Assembly: GCA_022361155.1 (NCBI GenBank)
Contig: JAKSBK010000299.1
Location: 1-50,930, forward strand
Source of the DNA: Pseudomonadota bacterium
GTDB taxonomy: Bacteria > Myxococcota_A > Polyangia > Polyangiales > JAKSBK01
Direction of reading: 5' to 3'
Length of the DNA: 50,930 nt
Within the stretch, counting starts at the first letter, position 1. Each line of letters opens with the position of its first letter. The notes below the pieces were generated by a model. It was given only the letters and a program-made list of their open reading frames with translations, did no database searches and had not been told where the DNA came from. Made by a program: the position numbers and the translations under genes. This document shows, one piece after another, positions 16,521 through 24,801 of this stretch.

Positions 16521-18848
16521 ATGCCCGCCGCTCTGCCACGGCTCGCGGCGCGCCACGTCAGGTTGCCGGGGTGGCTTGCCGTGGGGTTGGCGCTCTGTTG
16601 GGCCGGCCGGACCGCCGCTCAGGCCGATGCTCAGGTGACCCGACTCATCGTATCGTCCGGTGTTGCCGGGCGCCTCGCGCACCCTGTCTGCGCTGGTGGG
16701 GAAACGCTCAGGCCGAGCGACTTCGCCCGGAGCGCTGCGGCCTTGACCTGGCAACCGGCGTTGCGAGAGCGACCGCTGGCCTTTGATACCGGTGGCTTGC
16801 TGGCAGCTCGCGGGCCCACCAACTACGCTCTGCGCGAGCAGCCCAAGCAGCTGGCGAATCTCGTTGCGGAGCTGGGCTACGCGGCTCTGGTATTGGGTGT
16901 GGACGACCTCGGCGCTCGCCGCACGGACCTGGCTGCCGTCGTGCAAGCCCTTCGCGATCTCGCGATTCCGGTCATCGCCAGCAACCTCCGCTGTGGTGCC
17001 CGGGCAAAGGAGTTTTGTGCGGCGCTCGTGAGTGTTGACGACCCTGTGTGGCTGCACGACGACGGCAAGGCCAAGGTCGCGCTGATCGGCGTCATGCCGA
17101 GGCAGGCGTTCCTTGGGCTGTCGCCTGCGCGGGCGCGAAACTTCTCGCTCGCAGATCCCCTCGACACGATGCTCGCCAAGACGCGAGAGGCGCGCGAAAG
17201 GGGCGCCGAGCTGGTGATCGTCAGCTTGGATGCCTGGCGGGACCCGGACGCGGCTGCAAGCGCGTTGTCGCTAGTGCGCGGCATGCCGGAAGAGGAGCGC
17301 CCGGACGTGATGGTGGTGTCGACCCTTGGGGCCGAGCTGCTGTCCGCCCGTCCCGCCAGCGTTCGCCCGGTGATCGCGGCTGGGCCTCCGGGGGGATTGT
17401 TGGAAGTGCACCTCAGCCCCGCCAGGATGGGCGCGGGCTACGCGCTGGACGCCCGGCCGCTGCATGCGGGCTCCAGCGCGCCGCCGCCGCTTTCGGATTG
17501 GATGGCCGAGATCGGTCCTGAGTACTGCCGCCGCTGGGCAATGCCGCTGCCGAGTCGACGCCGTGTCGCGCGACCAAGGTCGAGGCAGCAGCTGCTCAAT
17601 CTGGCCGCGAACGTGATGCTCACGACCTCGGGCGCCGAAATCGCGGTGGTGGATGGTGCTCTCGTGGACCAGCCGTGGTCGCCGCTGCAGCCGCGTGGCG
17701 TCTCGCGCAGCGACATCGAAATGGCAATCGCCCGCGATGAGCCGCTCGTCGTGGCCGAGGTTGATAGGCGCTGGCTCAAGAAGGTCTACAGGGAGCTTCG
17801 GCGGCGGCGCAAGGCAGCCGGCCCGGACTCGAGCTCCTTGCTGCGACTGCACGGTGTTCACCGAGAGGGTCGCAAGCTGCATGTTGGCTGGCGTCGAGCC
17901 AGCAGCCGCGCACGCTACCGCATCGTGGCCACCAGACACGCGGCCCAAACTCGCCTGCGCAAGGGACCACGGTGGCGACCCGTTGCCGAGCCCCGGTTGC
18001 GATCGGCGATACTGCGCTACCTGTCGCGCACGGACGATCCTCGGGCGCAGGTGCTGGCGAATCCGGACCACTACGTGGAATGGCGAGCTCGGGTGGACAG
18101 CGAGGTGCAGTCAGCGGGTACTGCGATACGCAATCCCCGTTCCTACGATTCGGCCCAGCTCGACCGCAAGCAGAGCGCCACGCTGGGGGGACGGGCTTCG
18201 ATGCTTCTGGAGGGCAATCATGCGGATTGGGTGCTGCGCTTCAGAACAACGGCGCGCTACCAGAGCACCCGCGTCTTCGGGGACGAGGCCAGGATCAGCG
18301 AGGGAGACGACTTGATCACCAGCGAGCTGAGCGCGCGCTGGAGCCGGCTGCGGGCGCGCTACGCTTCCCGCAAGGTTCCGGACTTGTACGCGGCTTCCTA
18401 TCTCGAGAGCGAGTTCACGCTTCCCGAGGACAGGAGCTACAGGCACATGCTGTTTCGTCCCACGGTAGGCTTGAGCTTCATGGCTCTGTACGAGCTCGAG
18501 CTGCGCGTGCAGAGCGGCTTCGAAATGCAGCTCAAGGACCCCGAAGGGCGGGCTCGTCCGGGTGCGGGCGTGGAGCTGCTGCTCGACGACTGGGAAATCA
18601 TCGATCGCGACGACGATCTGGTGGAGCTCGACGCTCAGCTCAACTACTTCGTGACCGGGCTCGGAGGCAGCGCCCTGCAGACCCTGCGCGCTTCGTTCAA
18701 GACCAGGATCGAGCTCGAGCGCCGATTCGATCTGCGGTTTCAGGTGAACCTGTATGGGGAACACCGCCAGGGCGAGCCCCTTGCTGTGGCTGTGAACGTG
18801 AGCGTGGGGTTGGGGCTGACATGGTACACGCGTTCAACGGGTGGCTAA
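16521..18848 (+). CDS. Degenerate 5'-nucleotidase-like (UshA-type) protein fused to a C-terminal beta-barrel-like domain
   Basis: The 775-residue protein has a signal peptide (1-33). Residues 40-300 follow the metallophosphoesterase domain of UshA-type nucleotidases in order. Every metal-ligand position is changed: TNDxHG becomes SSGVAG (45-50), DAGD becomes DTGG (89-92), GNHxFD becomes GVDDLG (126-131), and the SH and GHxH histidines near 237 and 268 are missing. Residues about 355-445 resemble the C-terminal 5'-nucleotidase domain, with the substrate motif GGIR replaced (DGALVD). From about 530 to the end, alternating amphipathic strands rich in Tyr, Arg and Glu suggest an outer-membrane barrel. 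It is probably a non-catalytic binding or scaffolding envelope protein. It follows the TonB receptor on the same strand, with the palindrome between them. Confidence 0.6.
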   Translation: MPAALPRLAARHVRLPGWLAVGLALCWAGRTAAQADAQVTRLIVSSGVAGRLAHPVCAGGETLRPSDFARSAAALTWQPALRERPLAFDTGGLLAARGPTNYALREQPKQLANLVAELGYAALVLGVDDLGARRTDLAAVVQALRDLAIPVIASNLRCGARAKEFCAALVSVDDPVWLHDDGKAKVALIGVMPRQAFLGLSPARARNFSLADPLDTMLAKTREARERGAELVIVSLDAWRDPDAAASALSLVRGMPEEERPDVMVVSTLGAELLSARPASVRPVIAAGPPGGLLEVHLSPARMGAGYALDARPLHAGSSAPPPLSDWMAEIGPEYCRRWAMPLPSRRRVARPRSRQQLLNLAANVMLTTSGAEIAVVDGALVDQPWSPLQPRGVSRSDIEMAIARDEPLVVAEVDRRWLKKVYRELRRRRKAAGPDSSSLLRLHGVHREGRKLHVGWRRASSRARYRIVATRHAAQTRLRKGPRWRPVAEPRLRSAILRYLSRTDDPRAQVLANPDHYVEWRARVDSEVQSAGTAIRNPRSYDSAQLDRKQSATLGGRASMLLEGNHADWVLRFRTTARYQSTRVFGDEARISEGDDLITSELSARWSRLRARYASRKVPDLYAASYLESEFTLPEDRSYRHMLFRPTVGLSFMALYELELRVQSGFEMQLKDPEGRARPGAGVELLLDDWEIIDRDDDLVELDAQLNYFVTGLGGSALQTLRASFKTRIELERRFDLRFQVNLYGEHRQGEPLAVAVNVSVGLGLTWYTRSTGG

Positions 18849-19001
18849 GGCCCCCCCAAACCCTTGTGTACGACTATTGCGCGTGCCGTGAAAGGCTCTT
18901 GCACAACTCCCGCGTCGGCGTCAAGCTCCGAGCTCCAACCGGGCTGACACCAGCAGGGTTGGAATCGCACTTGCGGGCTATCGGGGAGAGGAGAGATTCG
19001 G

Positions 19002-20114
19002 ATGGACGGGCAAGGGCAGGGGGCAGGATCGCGACCGGTAGCGCAGGACGCCGTGGGTTTGCCCGAAGGCCACATCGGCTCGACCGATCCCGCCGATCGG
19101 AACCTGAAGCACTCGTGGGCATGCCGGTCGCTTGCTCCCCTTTCGACCTGGCGCTTCGCCGATCGATCGTCGAGCAGCAAGCCTCGCGTTGGGGACGTCG
19201 TAGTGGCAGAGATCGTCAAGACGGGCAAGCACCAGCGGGTCATGACCGCGAGCAACAAGCGGCTGCGCATGTACCCCGGAGACAAGATCCTCGGAGCGCT
19301 GGGCAACCGCTACGCCACCATGGCCTTCGAGGCTCGGGTCTCTTCCCTGCATAAGCTGCACATGCTCACGGGTGCCGGCATGTTGGGCACGGTGCGGTCG
19401 CGACACAGCGAGCAGCGGGCGCCGACCGAGCTCAGGTATCTGGGTCATCTGCTCGACGAATCCGGCAAGCCGGTCAACCTCAAAGATCGCCTGTTTCCAA
19501 CGGAGACTACGGAACTTGCTCCTTGCCGTACCTTGCTGGTCGTCGGCACGGCCATGGACACCGGCAAGACCACGGCGGTAGCCAGGCTCGCTCGGGGCCT
19601 TGCCCGCAGGGGCAAGCGAGTTGCAGCATGCAAGCTGACCGGCAGCGTATCGCACCGCGACCCCGATGAGCTTCTTGCGACCGGAGTTGTCGACGTCAGG
19701 GACTTCAGCGACTACGGGCTGCCCTCCACCTACCTTTGTCCGCAAGACGAGCTGGTGCGGCTCTACACGCGCATGCTCGAGGATGCGGCGCGCTGTGAGC
19801 CGGAGATCGTGCTCATGGAGCTCGCCGACGGTCTGCTGCAGCGCGAAACCTCCATGCTTCTCAGCGAGCCCGGGCTGCGCCGGCGCGCGGCGGGCGTCCT
19901 GCTTACCGCACCGTGCGCGGCATCCGCGCTCTATGCCGTAGCCGCGGTCGAGCAGCTGGGGCACCGAGTCGTCGGGGTCAGCGGCGTGATCACGAACTCT
20001 CCTCTGCTGGTCGCCGAGTTTGGCGGCCGCAGCAGCGTCCCGGTCGCAAGCTCGGCCGGCAGCGGCGACGCGCTCACGGACTTGGTCCTCGAGCGCCTGC
20101 GGATGGCGGTGTGA
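19002..20114 (+). CDS. P-loop NTPase (BioD/DUF1611-like), first gene of a five-gene operon
   Basis: The product has 370 residues. Residues 60-125 form a compact basic domain (GDVVVAEIVKTG, LRMYPGDKILGALGNRYAT). Residues 175-365 are a P-loop domain with VGTAMDTGKTT at 181-191, which resembles the dethiobiotin-synthetase/CobB/DUF1611 loop (TxTxxGKT). LMELADGLLQRE may be the Walker B-like region. Such proteins usually couple ATP or GTP to acyl or amide bond formation, but the substrate here is unknown. GGAGAGGAGAG directly before the ATG is a strong ribosome site. The last bases overlap the ABC gene start as GTGA (20111-20114), implying translational coupling. Confidence 0.7.
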   Translation: MDGQGQGAGSRPVAQDAVGLPEGHIGSTDPADRNLKHSWACRSLAPLSTWRFADRSSSSKPRVGDVVVAEIVKTGKHQRVMTASNKRLRMYPGDKILGALGNRYATMAFEARVSSLHKLHMLTGAGMLGTVRSRHSEQRAPTELRYLGHLLDESGKPVNLKDRLFPTETTELAPCRTLLVVGTAMDTGKTTAVARLARGLARRGKRVAACKLTGSVSHRDPDELLATGVVDVRDFSDYGLPSTYLCPQDELVRLYTRMLEDAARCEPEIVLMELADGLLQRETSMLLSEPGLRRRAAGVLLTAPCAASALYAVAAVEQLGHRVVGVSGVITNSPLLVAEFGGRSSVPVASSAGSGDALTDLVLERLRMAV

Positions 20115-21940
20115 AGCTCGATCCGCGCTTGCGGCTCGTGGTTCAGCATCTGAAGCACCACAAGTCGTTGCTGGTGTCGGCTCTCGGCCTGCGGCTGGCG
20201 CACGAGACGCTGCCGATGCAGGTGCCGGTGCTTACCGGGGCGATCGTAAGCGTTCTCGCCGGTGAGGCTCCTGTAGTGTACGCCTACCAGTGGCCTGACG
20301 CAGCTCCGCGGGAGGCGCTCGGCGTGGTTTCGCTGGGCCTGCTGGCGCTCGCCGTGCTGTACGGCTACGGCGCCTATGCGCGCCAGGTTGCCAGCGCCCG
20401 GCTGGGCCGCAGCCTGCTGGCATCGCTGCGCAAGGCGGTGACACGCAAGCTTCTGATGCTCGACGCAGAGCAGCAGAGGAACTACGGCACCGGCGAGCTG
20501 CTGGATCGTGCCCTCACGGATACCAGCTCGGTGCGCCGCTTCACCGAGGATGTGTTCGTGCACCTGCCTTCCAACGTGCTTCGGATCGTATATCCGACCG
20601 CGATGCTGCTGGCCTGCGACGCCGTGCTTGCCGGCCTCGCGTTTGGAGTGCTCGTACCGCAGTGGTCTGTGGCACGCTACCTCCAGAAGAAGTTGCACCG
20701 CGCCACGCGTCGCACACGGTCGGCTCACTCCGAGCTGGCCACGCACATCAAGGAGCACTCCGATGCGATCGAAACGGTTCAGGCGCTCAATGGCGAACAG
20801 CTGGCCGCAGCGCGGATGGAGCGACGGGCCGACGAGCTCGAGCGTGCCGAGCTGCGTGCCAGGCGTCTATCCGCGACCATCAACGGCTCGGTGCTCTTCA
20901 CCACGAGCCTCGGCCTCGCCCTGACGTGGTGGCAGGGTGGGCTGCGGGTGCTTCAAGGGTCGATGGCGGTCGGGACGCTGGTCACGTTTTGCGGCTTCGT
21001 GGTGCTGCTGTATGCGCCCATCCGTCGCTTCACGAAGATAGCCCACACCTGCCGTCGTGGCCTGGTTAGCCTGGAGCGACTTTCGGAGTTGTTGCAGCGT
21101 CCGGAGCCCCTGCGCGATCGAGCAGGGATGCGCGATCTCGAGGTCTCGAGGGGGGCGATCTCGCTCGAGGCAGTCTCGGTCAAACATGGCGGTCGGCGCA
21201 TCCTTGACGGCATCGACCTGCACATCGATCCCGGCCTGCTCACCGCGGTTGTCGGACGCAGCGGGGCCGGCAAGACCACGCTGCTGCGCTGTCTCGACCG
21301 CTTGCAGGAGCCCGATGCAGGTCGAGTGTTCATCGACGGTCAGGAGCTGGCCCAGGCACGACACGGTTCGGTCCGTTCGCAGGTGGCATTCGTGCCGCAA
21401 CAACCGATGGTGTTCACCGGCACGATCCTGGACAACATCCGTCTGTTTCAACCGGAAGCTTCCGCGGCCGACGTTCGCGCGGCCTGCGATCGGGCGCACG
21501 CCACGGAGTTCATCGAGCGACTACCCACCGGCTTCGGCGCTCAGCTTGGCCGGCGCGGCACCGACCTGCTGGGTGTGACGGTTCAAGGCGCCGCCAAGGT
21601 GGGGCTGCTGTCCGGTGGCGAGCTGCAGCGTTTGGCCATTGCTCGCGCCCTGCTCGCGAAGCCCAAGGTCCTGCTGCTGGACGAACCTACTTCCGCGCTT
21701 GATCCAGGTTCGGGCAGAGCGGTGCTCGCTGCGCTCAGGGAGCTCAGCGCCACGACGACCATAGTGGTGGTGGCCCACCATCTTCAAACAGCTCGCAGCG
21801 CCGATGCTGTTGTCGTGCTGGATGGCGGCAAGGTGGTGGCCCAGGGAACCCACCGGCAACTGCGCAATACGTGCTCCATCTACCAGACGTTGTTCAACCT
21901 CCATGCCGAAGGCGTTTCACATCTCCGACGCGCCCTGTGA
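20111..21940 (+). CDS. ABC exporter (membrane and ATPase domains in one chain)
   Basis: The 609-residue protein starts at GTG 20111, overlapping the previous stop. Residues 1-330 hold about six membrane segments in the MsbA/LapB-type export fold. Residues 350-600 are the ATPase: Walker A GRSGAGKTT near 381, signature LLSGGELQRLAIARA near 499, Walker B VLLLDEPTSALD near 520 and switch His in VVVAHH near 555. There is no N-terminal peptidase domain. It is a homodimeric half-transporter by architecture; its cargo is unknown. The upstream in-frame part of the open frame (from 19913) is non-coding shadow. The M14 peptidase gene starts inside its 3' end. Confidence 0.93.
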   Translation: MKLDPRLRLVVQHLKHHKSLLVSALGLRLAHETLPMQVPVLTGAIVSVLAGEAPVVYAYQWPDAAPREALGVVSLGLLALAVLYGYGAYARQVASARLGRSLLASLRKAVTRKLLMLDAEQQRNYGTGELLDRALTDTSSVRRFTEDVFVHLPSNVLRIVYPTAMLLACDAVLAGLAFGVLVPQWSVARYLQKKLHRATRRTRSAHSELATHIKEHSDAIETVQALNGEQLAAARMERRADELERAELRARRLSATINGSVLFTTSLGLALTWWQGGLRVLQGSMAVGTLVTFCGFVVLLYAPIRRFTKIAHTCRRGLVSLERLSELLQRPEPLRDRAGMRDLEVSRGAISLEAVSVKHGGRRILDGIDLHIDPGLLTAVVGRSGAGKTTLLRCLDRLQEPDAGRVFIDGQELAQARHGSVRSQVAFVPQQPMVFTGTILDNIRLFQPEASAADVRAACDRAHATEFIERLPTGFGAQLGRRGTDLLGVTVQGAAKVGLLSGGELQRLAIARALLAKPKVLLLDEPTSALDPGSGRAVLAALRELSATTTIVVVAHHLQTARSADAVVVLDGGKVVAQGTHRQLRNTCSIYQTLFNLHAEGVSHLRRAL

Positions 21941-23228
21941 CAACACGGGCGCAAGCACCACCGTGACCTCGAGCTTCGGTCGCTCGGTGGAGGATAGACC
22001 GCTGCGTGCCCTTCACTTCGGGCGACCAGACGCCACGCTGCGGGTGCTTGTCGTGGCCGGTCAGCACGGCGACGAACGCCACGCCCGCATCGCCGTCGAG
22101 GAGTTTGCCGGGCAGGCCTCCACACGAGCCCGCGAGCTCGACATGGCGCTTACGCTCGTGCCCGACGCGAATCCGGACGCAGCGCTACAACGGCAGCGTC
22201 GCAACGCCCTGGCAGTGGACCTGAATCGGGATCATCAACTGCTTTCGAGCCCCGAAACCCGAGCGCTTCACAGGCTGATGCGCGCGCTCGAACCGCACCT
22301 GTTCGTGGACGTGCACACCTACCCGACACGCCGGCGCCATCTGCTCCAACTCGGGCTCGCCTACTGCCACGATATCTTCGTCGAGCTGCCCACGAATCCA
22401 AACGCCGGACACGCCTTCGATGGTCCAGCGGGCGCGGGCTTCCTTGGCGGCGTAACAGGCGATCTCGAGCGCGCCGGCTTTCGTTCCGCACGTTACACGC
22501 TGTTCCGTCCCAAAGGACGCGTTCGTCACGGGACGCTCGACATCCGAGACGCGCGCAACTGGCTGAGCGTTCGCTACGGCCTGCCCTGCGTGCTTGTGGA
22601 GGGTCGTACGCCTCGACGCAGCGACGGCAGGCCCGGTCGCAACCGGGCCCGCGAGGCCCTCAAGACCGCCTTGCGGAGCGTTCTCGAGACGGCGAGCGCA
22701 CGGCGAGCCGAGCTGTGCAGCACGCCGGAGCGCCGCCGCAAGGTGGCGCTGTCGTGCCGCTACGTAGCGCAAGCGCAACCGCGCTGCTTCGATTTCCTCG
22801 ATCTGCGCTCGGGACAGGTTCGGAGCGTGCGCTGGCCGAGCCGCTTCGAGTCCGTGGTGCGACCGTACCGCCATGTGCATCTGCCCTGCGCGTATGCGAT
22901 CCCGAGCGGCCTCGGGAAGGTGATCGAGGTACTGAGCAGGCACGGCTTCCACGTCCGCAAGGCAGACTTCGACGGACCGGTCGAGGCCGTTCGCTACCGC
23001 ATGCTTGAAACCGAGACGGGGTTGACACGACGCCGGCCGCGCGTCCGTGCGGTGCGTGAGCCGACGCGGTTGCGGGACTACGTGCAGGTCAGCGCCCGGG
23101 AACGCTCCGGCGTCGCGCTGGCCCTGCTGCTTGAACCGCGCTCACGTTTCGGCTTGGTTCGCTACCCGGGGCTTGGCCTTCGGTTCGATCCCGACGGCGC
23201 CTATCCCATCCTGAGGCTGGAGCGATGA
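21903..23228 (+). CDS. M14-family zinc carboxypeptidase or deacylase
   Basis: From ATG 21903 the protein has 441 residues; GTG 21963 is an alternative. Zinc ligands of the M14 fold are visible: His55 and Glu58 in GQHGDERH and His138 in DVHTYP. Asn108-Arg109 match the substrate-carboxylate site, and Glu233 in VLVEGRT matches the catalytic base. A C-terminal region after 300 (CAYAIPSGLGKVIEVLSRHG) is seen in many M14 enzymes with an accessory domain. The general reaction is removal of a C-terminal residue or an N-acyl group. No export signal is seen, so it is probably cytosolic. It overlaps the ABC gene by 38 bp and the next gene by ATGA. Confidence 0.82.
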   Translation: MPKAFHISDAPCDNTGASTTVTSSFGRSVEDRPLRALHFGRPDATLRVLVVAGQHGDERHARIAVEEFAGQASTRARELDMALTLVPDANPDAALQRQRRNALAVDLNRDHQLLSSPETRALHRLMRALEPHLFVDVHTYPTRRRHLLQLGLAYCHDIFVELPTNPNAGHAFDGPAGAGFLGGVTGDLERAGFRSARYTLFRPKGRVRHGTLDIRDARNWLSVRYGLPCVLVEGRTPRRSDGRPGRNRAREALKTALRSVLETASARRAELCSTPERRRKVALSCRYVAQAQPRCFDFLDLRSGQVRSVRWPSRFESVVRPYRHVHLPCAYAIPSGLGKVIEVLSRHGFHVRKADFDGPVEAVRYRMLETETGLTRRRPRVRAVREPTRLRDYVQVSARERSGVALALLLEPRSRFGLVRYPGLGLRFDPDGAYPILRLER

Positions 23229-23797
23229 CCGCCGCCAGGCAGCAAAGCTCGCGACCGACCGCGAAGCAGCACGCCGCACAGCGGCCGGCCGCCGGGCTGC
23301 GTTCGGCCACACGCTTCCAAGCACCTTCAGCGCCGTTGCTGAGCCGGCGCGGGGCAAGCCTGTTCGGGCTGGTTTTGATCCTTGCCGTGGTTTATCCCGT
23401 GGTCGAAAACTGGAGCCGCCGGCCGCGGGACAACTTTCCATTGTCCTACTATCCCATGTTTTCCCAGAAGCGGGGCGAAACCGTCAAGGTGGCGTACGTT
23501 ATCGGGGTCGACCGCGATGGAAACGAGCAGCACTTGCCCAGGCGGGTCATCGGCAGCGGCGGCCACAATCAAGTACGCCGCCAGATCAACCGTGCTGTCA
23601 AACGCGGGTGGAGCGATGAGCTGTGCCGTGAGGTCGCCTCCCGCGTCGCGGCTCGCAGGGAAAAGTACCCGGATGTGACCACGATCAAGGTCGTCCGAGG
23701 CAGCTTCGGGATCGCAGATTTCATGCACCACCAGATAAGCACGCCGCGCAAGCGAGTTACACACGCGACGTGTAGCGTGCGCAGCGGAGAGGCATGA
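23225..23797 (+). CDS. Single-span membrane protein with YPMFS motif, partner of HTTM protein
   Basis: The 190-residue protein has a basic N-terminal tail, one membrane segment at about 44-61, and then DNFPLSYYPMFS at 69-80. The remainder is a soluble, basic domain with two cysteines. A YPMFS/WRMFS phrase following a transmembrane helix is characteristic of small proteins encoded next to HTTM (vitamin-K-dependent carboxylase-like) genes; the second pair in this window (45174-47104) has the same layout. The start overlaps the M14 stop (ATGA) and the stop overlaps the HTTM start (ATGA). Function not known. Confidence 0.65.
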   Translation: MTAARQQSSRPTAKQHAAQRPAAGLRSATRFQAPSAPLLSRRGASLFGLVLILAVVYPVVENWSRRPRDNFPLSYYPMFSQKRGETVKVAYVIGVDRDGNEQHLPRRVIGSGGHNQVRRQINRAVKRGWSDELCREVASRVAARREKYPDVTTIKVVRGSFGIADFMHHQISTPRKRVTHATCSVRSGEA

Positions 23798-24801
23798 GCT
23801 CGATCAAGCAAAGCAGCTCGATCAAGCAAAGCAGCTCGATCAAGCAAAGCAGCTCGATCAAGCAAAGCCTGGCGGGCTTCTGGTTCATGGAGGCTCCAGC
23901 CACCCGTCTTGCCATCGTGCGCATCCTGATAGGCGCCTACGGCCTGTTCTACGTCGGCACGCGCTATTCGATGCTGCTTGAGGTCGCTCACACGCGCGTG
24001 TCCATGTTCAAGCCCGTGGGGCCCGTGGCGTTGCTCGAGCAGCCCCTGCCGCCCGGGCTGTTCCAGCTCATCGTGATCGCCACGCTCGTCTTCAACGTGG
24101 CCTGGCTTTTAGGGTGGAAGTTCCGCTGGACCGGTCCCCTCTATGCGCTGCTGCTGCTCGTGGTGTTGAGCTACCGCAACTCGTGGTCGATGATCTACCA
24201 CAGTCACAACATAGTGGTGCTTCACGCCCTCGTTGTGGCCTTCAGCCCCGCGGCCGACCGCTACGCATACCGTGGTGGGCTGTGGCGTTCGAGCTTGAGC
24301 GACGTGTCGCGGGTGGATTCGCCGTCGGGCTGGCAATACGGGTGGCCGCTGCAGCTGATCTGCCTGCTCACCGCCCTGGCTTATTGGCTTGCTGGAGTCG
24401 CCAAGCTGGCCGGCGAGCTCGGGCTCGCCTGGATGGGCGGTAGCGCACTGCGCGACCAGATCGCGGTCGACGCCATTCGCAAGGAGGTGCTCGGCAGCGT
24501 CGTGTCGCCGCTGGCCTTCGAGCTCTACGACCAGATTGCGCTGTTCACCGTGATCGGAATCCTGACCATGGTTCTCGAGCTCGGCGGGCCGGTTTCGTTG
24601 CTGAACAGGAGGGCCGCCCGAATCTGGGCCCTGGCCACCTGGGGCATGCATTGGGGGATCTTCGCCCTGATGCACATCAAGTTCCGTTACCAATTGTCCG
24701 GACTCGTTTTCGCCGCTTTTTTCCCGGTAGAGCGGCTCGTAGCCTGGCTTGGGTCGTATCTTGCTCGCCTGCTACCTCGCCGGGGGGGCAACCAGGCGTG
24801 A
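23794..24801 (+). CDS. HTTM-domain (vitamin K-dependent carboxylase-like) membrane protein
   Basis: The 335-residue protein has about seven to eight membrane segments. EAPATRLAIVRILIGAYGLF opens the domain, as is typical of HTTM proteins, and conserved HSHN and AYWLAGVAKL phrases follow. HTTM domains are related to gamma-glutamyl carboxylase, but most bacterial members lack proven carboxylase activity. The first 24 residues are four exact SSIKQS units encoded by an 18-bp tandem repeat directly after the start codon. It is the last gene of the coupled operon starting at 19002; a 69-bp gap separates it from the next gene. Confidence 0.8.
   Translation: MSSIKQSSSIKQSSSIKQSSSIKQSLAGFWFMEAPATRLAIVRILIGAYGLFYVGTRYSMLLEVAHTRVSMFKPVGPVALLEQPLPPGLFQLIVIATLVFNVAWLLGWKFRWTGPLYALLLLVVLSYRNSWSMIYHSHNIVVLHALVVAFSPAADRYAYRGGLWRSSLSDVSRVDSPSGWQYGWPLQLICLLTALAYWLAGVAKLAGELGLAWMGGSALRDQIAVDAIRKEVLGSVVSPLAFELYDQIALFTVIGILTMVLELGGPVSLLNRRAARIWALATWGMHWGIFALMHIKFRYQLSGLVFAAFFPVERLVAWLGSYLARLLPRRGGNQA
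23797..23868 (+). repeat. 18-bp tandem repeat, four exact copies, inside the HTTM gene start
   Basis: The unit AGCTCGATCAAGCAAAGC occurs four times without mismatch, beginning at the first base after the ATG. It encodes SSIKQS repeats in frame. Exact copies indicate recent expansion or ongoing slippage. Since 18 is a multiple of three, copy-number change would alter tail length but not the reading frame. Confidence 0.97.

What the first reader, a model, noticed from the sequence alone, without database searches (positions are those of the whole stretch)
19002..24801. Five-gene coupled operon: P-loop NTPase, ABC exporter, M14 peptidase, YPMFS protein, HTTM protein
Seen: all four junctions overlap (GTGA at 20111, a 38-bp overlap at 21903, ATGA at 23225 and at 23794), so the five products are probably made in fixed ratio. 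Known: HTTM domains are relatives of gamma-glutamyl carboxylase, M14 enzymes trim or deacylate peptides, and BioD-like P-loop proteins form amide or acyl bonds. Inference: together with an exporter this looks like a make-modify-export pathway for a peptide or acylated small molecule. No precursor peptide gene was seen, which argues either for a small-molecule substrate or a precursor elsewhere.
Basis: partly seen in the sequence, partly recalled or inferred. Interest (0 to 1): 0.8.

Follow-up and report, generated by a model that had tools for sequence, protein, structure and literature searches.

The report
Enzyme-exporter-hydrolase trio joined to HTTM pair
The five-gene operon is real but is two unrelated modules joined together: a rare trio (an unnamed ATP-binding enzyme, an exporter and a zinc hydrolase) that also occurs in one distant bacterium, and a common membrane-protein pair; relatives of the first enzyme sit in arginine-making operons of genomes that lack the usual first enzyme, so it may belong to an undescribed family that acylates glutamate-like molecules.

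Summary
The observation largely holds: five co-directional ORFs at 19002-24801, three genuine 4-base start/stop overlaps, and a 38-base overlap at 21903 that depends on an uncertain start. The reading as one pathway is only partly supported. NTPase-ABC-M14 recurs in the same order in a Desulfobacterales MAG (L035) with no YPMFS or HTTM gene beside it; YPMFS-HTTM is a free-standing pair, widespread in the window's phylum. So the operon is composite.

The strongest lead is the NTPase: a beta-barrel plus SIMIBI P-loop protein under every family cut-off tested. Its wider family sits in arginine operons (argG-NTP-argC-argD-argF'). Of 60 phylum genomes with an arg-linked copy, 56 lack ArgJ, and 18 checked further have no ArgA over cut-off; 11 of 12 genomes with the non-arg clade (the window's included) have ArgJ. 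The arg-linked proteins are thus candidates for the missing N-acetylglutamate synthase. The window's paralogue keeps the core with an altered pocket. Best model: acylation (or similar amide step) of a Glu/Asp-like molecule, export by a half-ABC transporter, cytosolic hydrolysis by M14. Substrate and reaction are untested. The HTTM protein keeps the equivalent of gamma-carboxylase Lys218.

The parts
19002..20114 (+). NTP: 370-aa protein, N-terminal beta-barrel domain (~50-151) plus SIMIBI-class P-loop domain (Walker A GTAMDTGKT 182-190, K211-L-T213-G214, D220, F235-D237-G239, E273, D276-G277)
   Evidence: ORF; fold; family alignment and conservation; 50-52% identical homologue in L035
20111..21940 (+). 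ABC: 609-aa half-size ABC exporter (membrane + ATPase domains), MsbA-like, Walker A/signature/Walker B/H-loop intact in the sequence, no C39 leader-peptidase domain
   Evidence: Pfam PF00664 and PF00005 over cut-off; 41% identical neighbour in L035
21903..23228 (+). M14: metallo-hydrolase, no TM or signal peptide seen; HGDE (H55, E58), H138, DLNR (N108, R109) and E233 conserved with L035; start codon uncertain (21903 or 21963)
   Evidence: Pfam AstE_AspA_cat 4.9e-10 and Peptidase_M14 8.4e-7; alignment; PDB profile hits; TM scan
23225..23797 (+). YPMFS protein, 190 aa, one N-terminal TM helix, invariant FP.S.YPMF motif and two invariant Cys
   Evidence: Alignment of 7 relatives; TM; no Pfam family
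23794..24801 (+). HTTM protein, 335 aa, membrane protein; invariant AG.AK (K204) aligns with Lys218 of vitamin K gamma-carboxylase
   Evidence: HTTM PF05090 in 4 of 8 relatives, best 4.7e-17; profile hit to gamma-carboxylase structures E=3.6e-4
23797..23868 (+). Perfect 18-bp tandem repeat, 4.0 copies, coding SSIKQS repeats at the HTTM N-terminus; absent from the other 7 aligned relatives
   Evidence: TRF, alignment
18983..19001 (+). Ribosome-binding region GGGGAGAGGAGAG before the NTP start
   Evidence: Sequence

Best explanation
The operon joins two modules. Module 1 (NTP-ABC-M14) is a small-molecule cassette. The NTP is a paralogue of an undescribed arg-operon protein family that probably makes N-acetyl(acyl)glutamate; in the cassette it would acylate (or form a comparable amide bond on) a different, probably Glu/Asp-like, amino acid or short peptide in the cytosol. 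The half-ABC transporter exports the product. The cytosolic M14 enzyme, related to N-acyl-amino-acid deacylases, MpaA and cytosolic carboxypeptidases, hydrolyses the same kind of bond, recycling unexported product or trimming a precursor. Module 2 (YPMFS-HTTM) is a separate membrane module, common in the phylum, that has been joined to the same transcript. Shown: gene order, homology, module recurrence, conserved core residues, arg-operon link and ArgJ/ArgA absence. Inferred: acyl transfer, substrate, direction of transport, role of M14.
For: Trio recurs in L035 with the same order and overlaps and no duo; duo is free-standing in the phylum. NTP family in arg operons, 73 loci; ArgJ absent in 56/60 arg-linked phylum genomes but present in 11/12 genomes with the non-arg clade and in 15/20 NTP-negative genomes; in 18 arg-linked genomes ArgA (TIGR01890) matches strongly over the kinase part only, none over cut-off, and short ArgA (PRK07757) none over cut-off; argH in view is not GNAT-fused. 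Window NTP keeps the family-wide core residues but differs at 280-283 and 331-333. Non-arg clade is one group, SH-aLRT 98. The sister clade also pairs NTP with a hydrolase (4 of 5 loci) and with ABC or HlyD-type transport genes (4 of 5). M14 best Pfam match is the AstE/AspA catalytic domain.
Against: No biochemistry for any NTP-family member. Only two trio genomes were found. M14 relatives by PDB profile are carboxypeptidases and MpaA rather than AstE/AspA, and L035 M14 falls just under the AstE/AspA cut-off. The ArgJ/NTP anticorrelation is not corrected for phylogeny, and four genomes have both. A GNAT-type N-acylglutamate synthase (Cabys_1732/BT3761 type) was not directly excluded. SIMIBI folds also include metallochaperones and GTPases. 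The M14 AlphaFold model failed (pLDDT 39).
Confidence: 0.4

Rival explanations
1. Non-ribosomal peptide / cyanophycin-like system: NTP modifies an Asp/Glu/Arg-rich peptide or its dipeptides, the ABC moves it and M14 is the trimming peptidase.
For: Two close relatives of the NTP (L231, L232) start operons with an HlyD adaptor, a 7TM-ATP-grasp protein, cyanophycinase (TIGR02069 over cut-off) and, alongside, a cyanophycin-synthetase-like gene. The window ABC scores 257 bits to CphA_assoc_ABC.
Against: No ATP-grasp or cyanophycinase beside the cassette in the window or L035; ABC is far below the CphA_assoc_ABC cut-off (257 vs 880) and closer to MsbA (334).
Confidence: 0.25
2. One five-gene pathway: a peptide or small molecule is made, carboxylated by HTTM, trimmed by M14 and exported.
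For: Overlapping genes; HTTM keeps the Lys218 equivalent of gamma-carboxylase.
Against: Trio without duo in L035; duo without trio across the phylum; no precursor ORF; no C39 domain in the ABC.
Confidence: 0.12
3. The NTP is a SIMIBI assembly factor (HypB/MeaB/ApbC-like) that loads or repairs the metallo-hydrolase or another enzyme.
For: VIA Z 17.3 for ApbC and 16.6 for HypB, tied with DUF1611 (17.1) and BioD (16.2).
Against: Arg-operon position and ArgJ/ArgA absence point to a biosynthetic step; Zn hydrolases of M14 type have no known need for such a factor (own knowledge).
Confidence: 0.12

Closest known systems
DUF1611 / DgcN family (PF07755; 2g0t, 2obn)
   Same: SIMIBI P-loop domain: VIA Z 17.1 (2g0t) and 15.9 (2obn); profile-profile E 5.6e-6 over 172 columns. 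DgcN is, from my own knowledge, a D-Glu N-acetyltransferase of this family; PMC12363236 only calls dgcN the key gene of a D-Glu racemization pathway.
   Different: Below the Pfam cut-off (19.7 vs 25 bits); N-terminal domain is a predicted beta-barrel and did not align in the profile comparison; the K-x-T-G / F-x-D-x-G motifs lie in a stretch poorly aligned with DUF1611.
Dethiobiotin synthetase BioD (TIGR00347)
   Same: P-loop fold; only sequence hits in the PDB
   Different: 13.1 bits vs cut-off 83.3; similarity limited to the Walker A region
N-acetylglutamate synthases: ArgJ, ArgA, NAGS/K (PMC3236213), ArgH(A) (PMC1382215), GNAT ArgA2 (PMC9026213, PMC7311316)
   Same: Same slot in the arginine pathway, by genome context, for the arg-linked NTP family
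   Different: No sequence relation seen; P-loop instead of GNAT or ArgJ fold; the window's own copy is in an ArgJ-containing genome and outside arg operons
Vitamin K-dependent gamma-carboxylase / HTTM (PF05090)
   Same: HTTM-type membrane region, Lys218 equivalent invariant
   Different: 335 aa, lacks the large C-terminal part; partner is a YPMFS protein; His160 equivalence uncertain
MpaA, AstE/AspA and cytosolic carboxypeptidases (M14)
   Same: Zn-binding and DLNR motifs; Pfam, NCBIfam and PDB profile hits
   Different: Full-length relative found only in L035; ~200-residue C-terminal part unassigned

Membership tests
DUF1611 (PF07755) | Pfam gathering score | tested here: not met
   19.7 bits vs 25; whole-genome scan 20.8 bits, not over cut-off
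DUF1611 (PF07755) | Shared P-loop fold | tested here: met
   VIA Z 17.1, rmsd 3.0, 174 aligned; tied with other SIMIBI folds, so not specific
BioD | NCBIfam equivalog cut-off | tested here: not met
   13.1 vs 83.3 bits
ABC exporter (half transporter) | ABC_membrane plus ABC_tran in one chain | tested here: met
   94.2 and 104.1 bits, both over cut-off
M14 metallopeptidase / AstE-AspA | Pfam cut-offs and zinc ligands HxxE...H | tested here: met
   29.3 vs 21.6 and 39.7 vs 25 bits; H55, E58, H138 conserved in L035
M14 metallopeptidase / AstE-AspA | Deacylase versus carboxypeptidase activity | not testable with these tools
   needs an assay
HTTM (PF05090) | Pfam match | tested here: inconclusive
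   window protein no match; 4 of 8 aligned members match, best 4.7e-17
Vitamin K gamma-carboxylase | Active-site Lys218 | tested here: met
   K204 aligns to the second Lys of AGVKKL and is invariant in 8 members; role of Lys218 from PMC9146348
Vitamin K gamma-carboxylase | His160 | tested here: inconclusive
   invariant H136 lies about two columns from His160 in the alignment
RiPP cassette | Precursor peptide gene nearby | tested here: not met
   no small ORF shared by window and L035 other than antisense echoes
N-acetylglutamate synthase (arg-linked NTP relatives) | Located in arg operon where ArgJ/ArgA are absent | tested here: met
   73 arg-linked loci; 56/60 phylum genomes without ArgJ; no ArgA over cut-off in 18 checked; GNAT ArgA2 not tested
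N-acetylglutamate synthase (window NTP itself) | Located in arg operon where ArgJ is absent | tested here: not met
   no arg genes next to it; own genome has ArgJ at C314
N-acetylglutamate synthase | Acetyl transfer to glutamate | not testable with these tools
   needs enzyme assay or complementation

The most novel reading that the evidence does not exclude
A previously unnamed beta-barrel + P-loop protein family is a separate, non-GNAT, non-ArgJ class of N-acylglutamate synthase in arginine operons of this phylum and of Bacteroidota/Rhodothermales, and a divergent branch of it has been recruited into make-export-hydrolyse cassettes (NTP-ABC-M14 here; with alpha/beta hydrolases, exporters and cyanophycin genes elsewhere).
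Probability: 0.35. Interest if true: 0.85.

Novelty: new variant of a known kind. Interest (0 to 1): 0.58.

Why it matters
If right, it fills the first step of arginine biosynthesis in many genomes that look complete except for N-acetylglutamate synthase, with a fold not known for that step, and it predicts the chemistry of a cryptic export cassette. Both are testable with one complementation experiment. It also shows that tight gene overlap in one genome can join unrelated modules, so overlap alone is poor evidence for one pathway.

Tried and rejected
Five-gene unit as a conserved system: rejected by L035 and by the free-standing YPMFS-HTTM pairs. Anti-phage defence: PADLOC gave only generic ATPase matches to the ABC ATP-binding domain. 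RiPP with precursor: no shared small ORF. More trio copies: none in 379 phylum genomes, 38 relatives, 395 genomes of the L035 phylum or the plasmid set, beyond the window and L035. M14 structure: unusable model, no fold search made. YPMFS: no Pfam family or meaningful PDB profile match. The beta-barrel half of NTP is barely covered by the fold search, so no claim of a new fold. GNATs found by the short-ArgA model in G265 and G353 lie in Mur-ligase-like ORFs, not in argH fusions. Two tree rows (L195, L172) are very long branches, probably wrong-frame ORFs, and were left out of the residue counts. The DgcN paper itself is not held.

Full report
Observation. The five ORFs exist as described: NTP 19002-20114, ABC 20111-21940, M14 21903-23228, YPMFS 23225-23797, HTTM 23794-24801, all on +. 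Three junctions are 4-base overlaps. The fourth (38 bp) depends on ATG 21903, which has no ribosome-binding site and whose N-terminal residues do not align with the homologue; GTG 21963 would leave no overlap. The window is contig C299 of a 5.4-Mb genome, 99% complete. Its name is not given; genomes of 9-13 Mb in its order suggest Myxococcota (Polyangia), which I did not confirm.

Domains. ABC: PF00664 + PF00005. M14: AstE_AspA_cat 4.9e-10 and Peptidase_M14 8.4e-7, with MpaA as best NCBIfam match; the nearest PDB sequences by profile are M14 carboxypeptidases (3k2k, 4b6z, 4a37) and MpaA. NTP: only sub-threshold CbiA, AAA_26, DUF1611 and BioD matches. HTTM: no match itself, but 4 of 8 aligned members match PF05090 (best 4.7e-17), and the family profile aligns with vitamin K gamma-carboxylase (E 3.6e-4), K204 falling on Lys218. 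Lys218 initiates the carboxylase reaction (PMC9146348).

Two modules. One locus in the genome collection, L035 (Desulfobacterales MAG), carries NTP (50-52%), ABC (41%) and M14 (40%) in the same order, with a 4-base NTP/ABC overlap, and nothing like YPMFS or HTTM follows. In 379 genomes of the window's phylum the full-length M14 occurs only in the window's genome, whereas HTTM relatives (28-46% identity) occur in 46 genomes, the window's included, with a YPMFS gene just upstream in most of the 20 loci read and no constant third partner. In 395 genomes of the L035 phylum no further trio M14 was seen (one partial match, E 5e-18, without trio neighbours). The five-gene operon is thus a rare trio joined to a common duo.

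What the NTPase is. A 10-sequence AlphaFold model (pLDDT 69) gives a beta-barrel (about 50-151) and a P-loop domain. The P-loop domain matches SIMIBI proteins: ApbC Z 17.3, DUF1611 2g0t Z 17.1, HypB 16.6, BioD 16.2, effectively tied. A profile comparison with DUF1611 proteins from the phylum gives E 5.6e-6, over the P-loop domain only.

Arginine link. Homologues at 25-39% identity were found in 77 of 379 phylum genomes (window's included) and, at 26-32%, in Bacteroidota/Rhodothermales. Reading the neighbourhoods, 73 loci lie within 400 bp of argG or argC, usually argG-NTP-argC-argD-argF'-argB; argG, argC, argD, N-acetylornithine carbamoyltransferase and argB were confirmed by NCBIfam/Pfam in sample loci. 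ArgJ (PF01960) is missing from 56 of 60 arg-linked phylum genomes; it is present in 11 of 12 tested genomes with the non-arg clade and in 15 of 20 NTP-negative genomes tested. In 18 arg-linked genomes, ArgA (TIGR01890) gives strong matches over its kinase part only (up to residue 286, consistent with ArgB), with a few weak GNAT-like matches, none over cut-off; the short ArgA model gives none over cut-off. argH genes in view have normal C-termini, so the ArgH(A) fusion (PMC1382215) is not the answer there. The pathway then lacks a known N-acetylglutamate synthase, and the arg-linked NTP is the obvious candidate. Untested: GNATs of the Cabys_1732/BT3761 type (PMC7311316, PMC9026213), and correction for shared ancestry. 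No description of such a family was found in the paper library; two arg-linked members scanned have no Pfam match.

From arginine to the cassette. In the tree the non-arg members form one group (SH-aLRT 98) with three branches: window + L035; L050-L054; and six others. The window NTP keeps R103, the Walker A, K211, T213, G214, D220, F235, D237, G239, E273, D276 and G277, but differs from arg-linked members at 280-283 and 331-333: same core, different pocket. In the sister branch NTP is followed by an alpha/beta hydrolase (L054, L231, L232, L233) and is linked to an ABC protein (L053, L233) or to an HlyD adaptor, a 7TM-ATP-grasp protein, cyanophycinase and a cyanophycin-synthetase-like gene (L231, L232). 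So NTP + hydrolase + transport recurs with unrelated hydrolases.

Mechanism. Most likely (0.4): NTP acylates or otherwise amide-links a Glu/Asp-like amino acid or short peptide; ABC exports it; M14, cytosolic by lack of a signal or TM segment, hydrolyses the same type of bond. Every functional step is inferred. Rivals: cyanophycin-like peptide chemistry; one five-gene HTTM pathway; SIMIBI assembly factor.

Verdict. Ordinary as an 'operon of five'; interesting for the NTP family, which turns a gap in arginine biosynthesis into a one-plasmid complementation test.

Noticed in passing
L036-L048, L056-L059, L061-L069, L154-L208 (most): Relatives of the NTPase lie between argG and argC in arginine operons of genomes that mostly lack ArgJ and, where checked, show no ArgA over cut-off: candidate unnamed N-acylglutamate synthase.
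   Followed up: yes
L231:287-9397 and L232:1-8871: NTP relative heading an operon with two PHB-depolymerase-like hydrolase domains, HlyD adaptor, 7TM-transglutaminase/ATP-grasp fusion and cyanophycinase, with a cyanophycin-synthetase-like gene next to it.
   Followed up: partly
window 23797-23868: Perfect 18-bp tandem repeat (4.0 copies) right after the HTTM start codon, coding SSIKQS repeats absent from the aligned relatives; copy number could vary in frame.
   Followed up: partly
window 16521-18848: 775-aa secreted-looking ORF just upstream of the operon with no Pfam or NCBIfam match.
   Followed up: no
L101-L119, L120-L139: YPMFS-HTTM pairs are widespread in the phylum; the HTTM protein keeps the gamma-carboxylase Lys218 equivalent while YPMFS has two invariant cysteines and a single TM: possibly a two-subunit carboxylase-like membrane system.
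   Followed up: partly
G147:C449:81167-82057 (L190) and G215:C165:3109-3996 (L193): Two arg-linked NTP copies have one in-frame stop codon each; sequencing error or decay not examined.
   Followed up: no
L154 (G337), L155 (G253), L157 (G301), L158 (G310): Four genomes with an arg-linked NTP also have ArgJ; contamination or redundancy not resolved.
   Followed up: no
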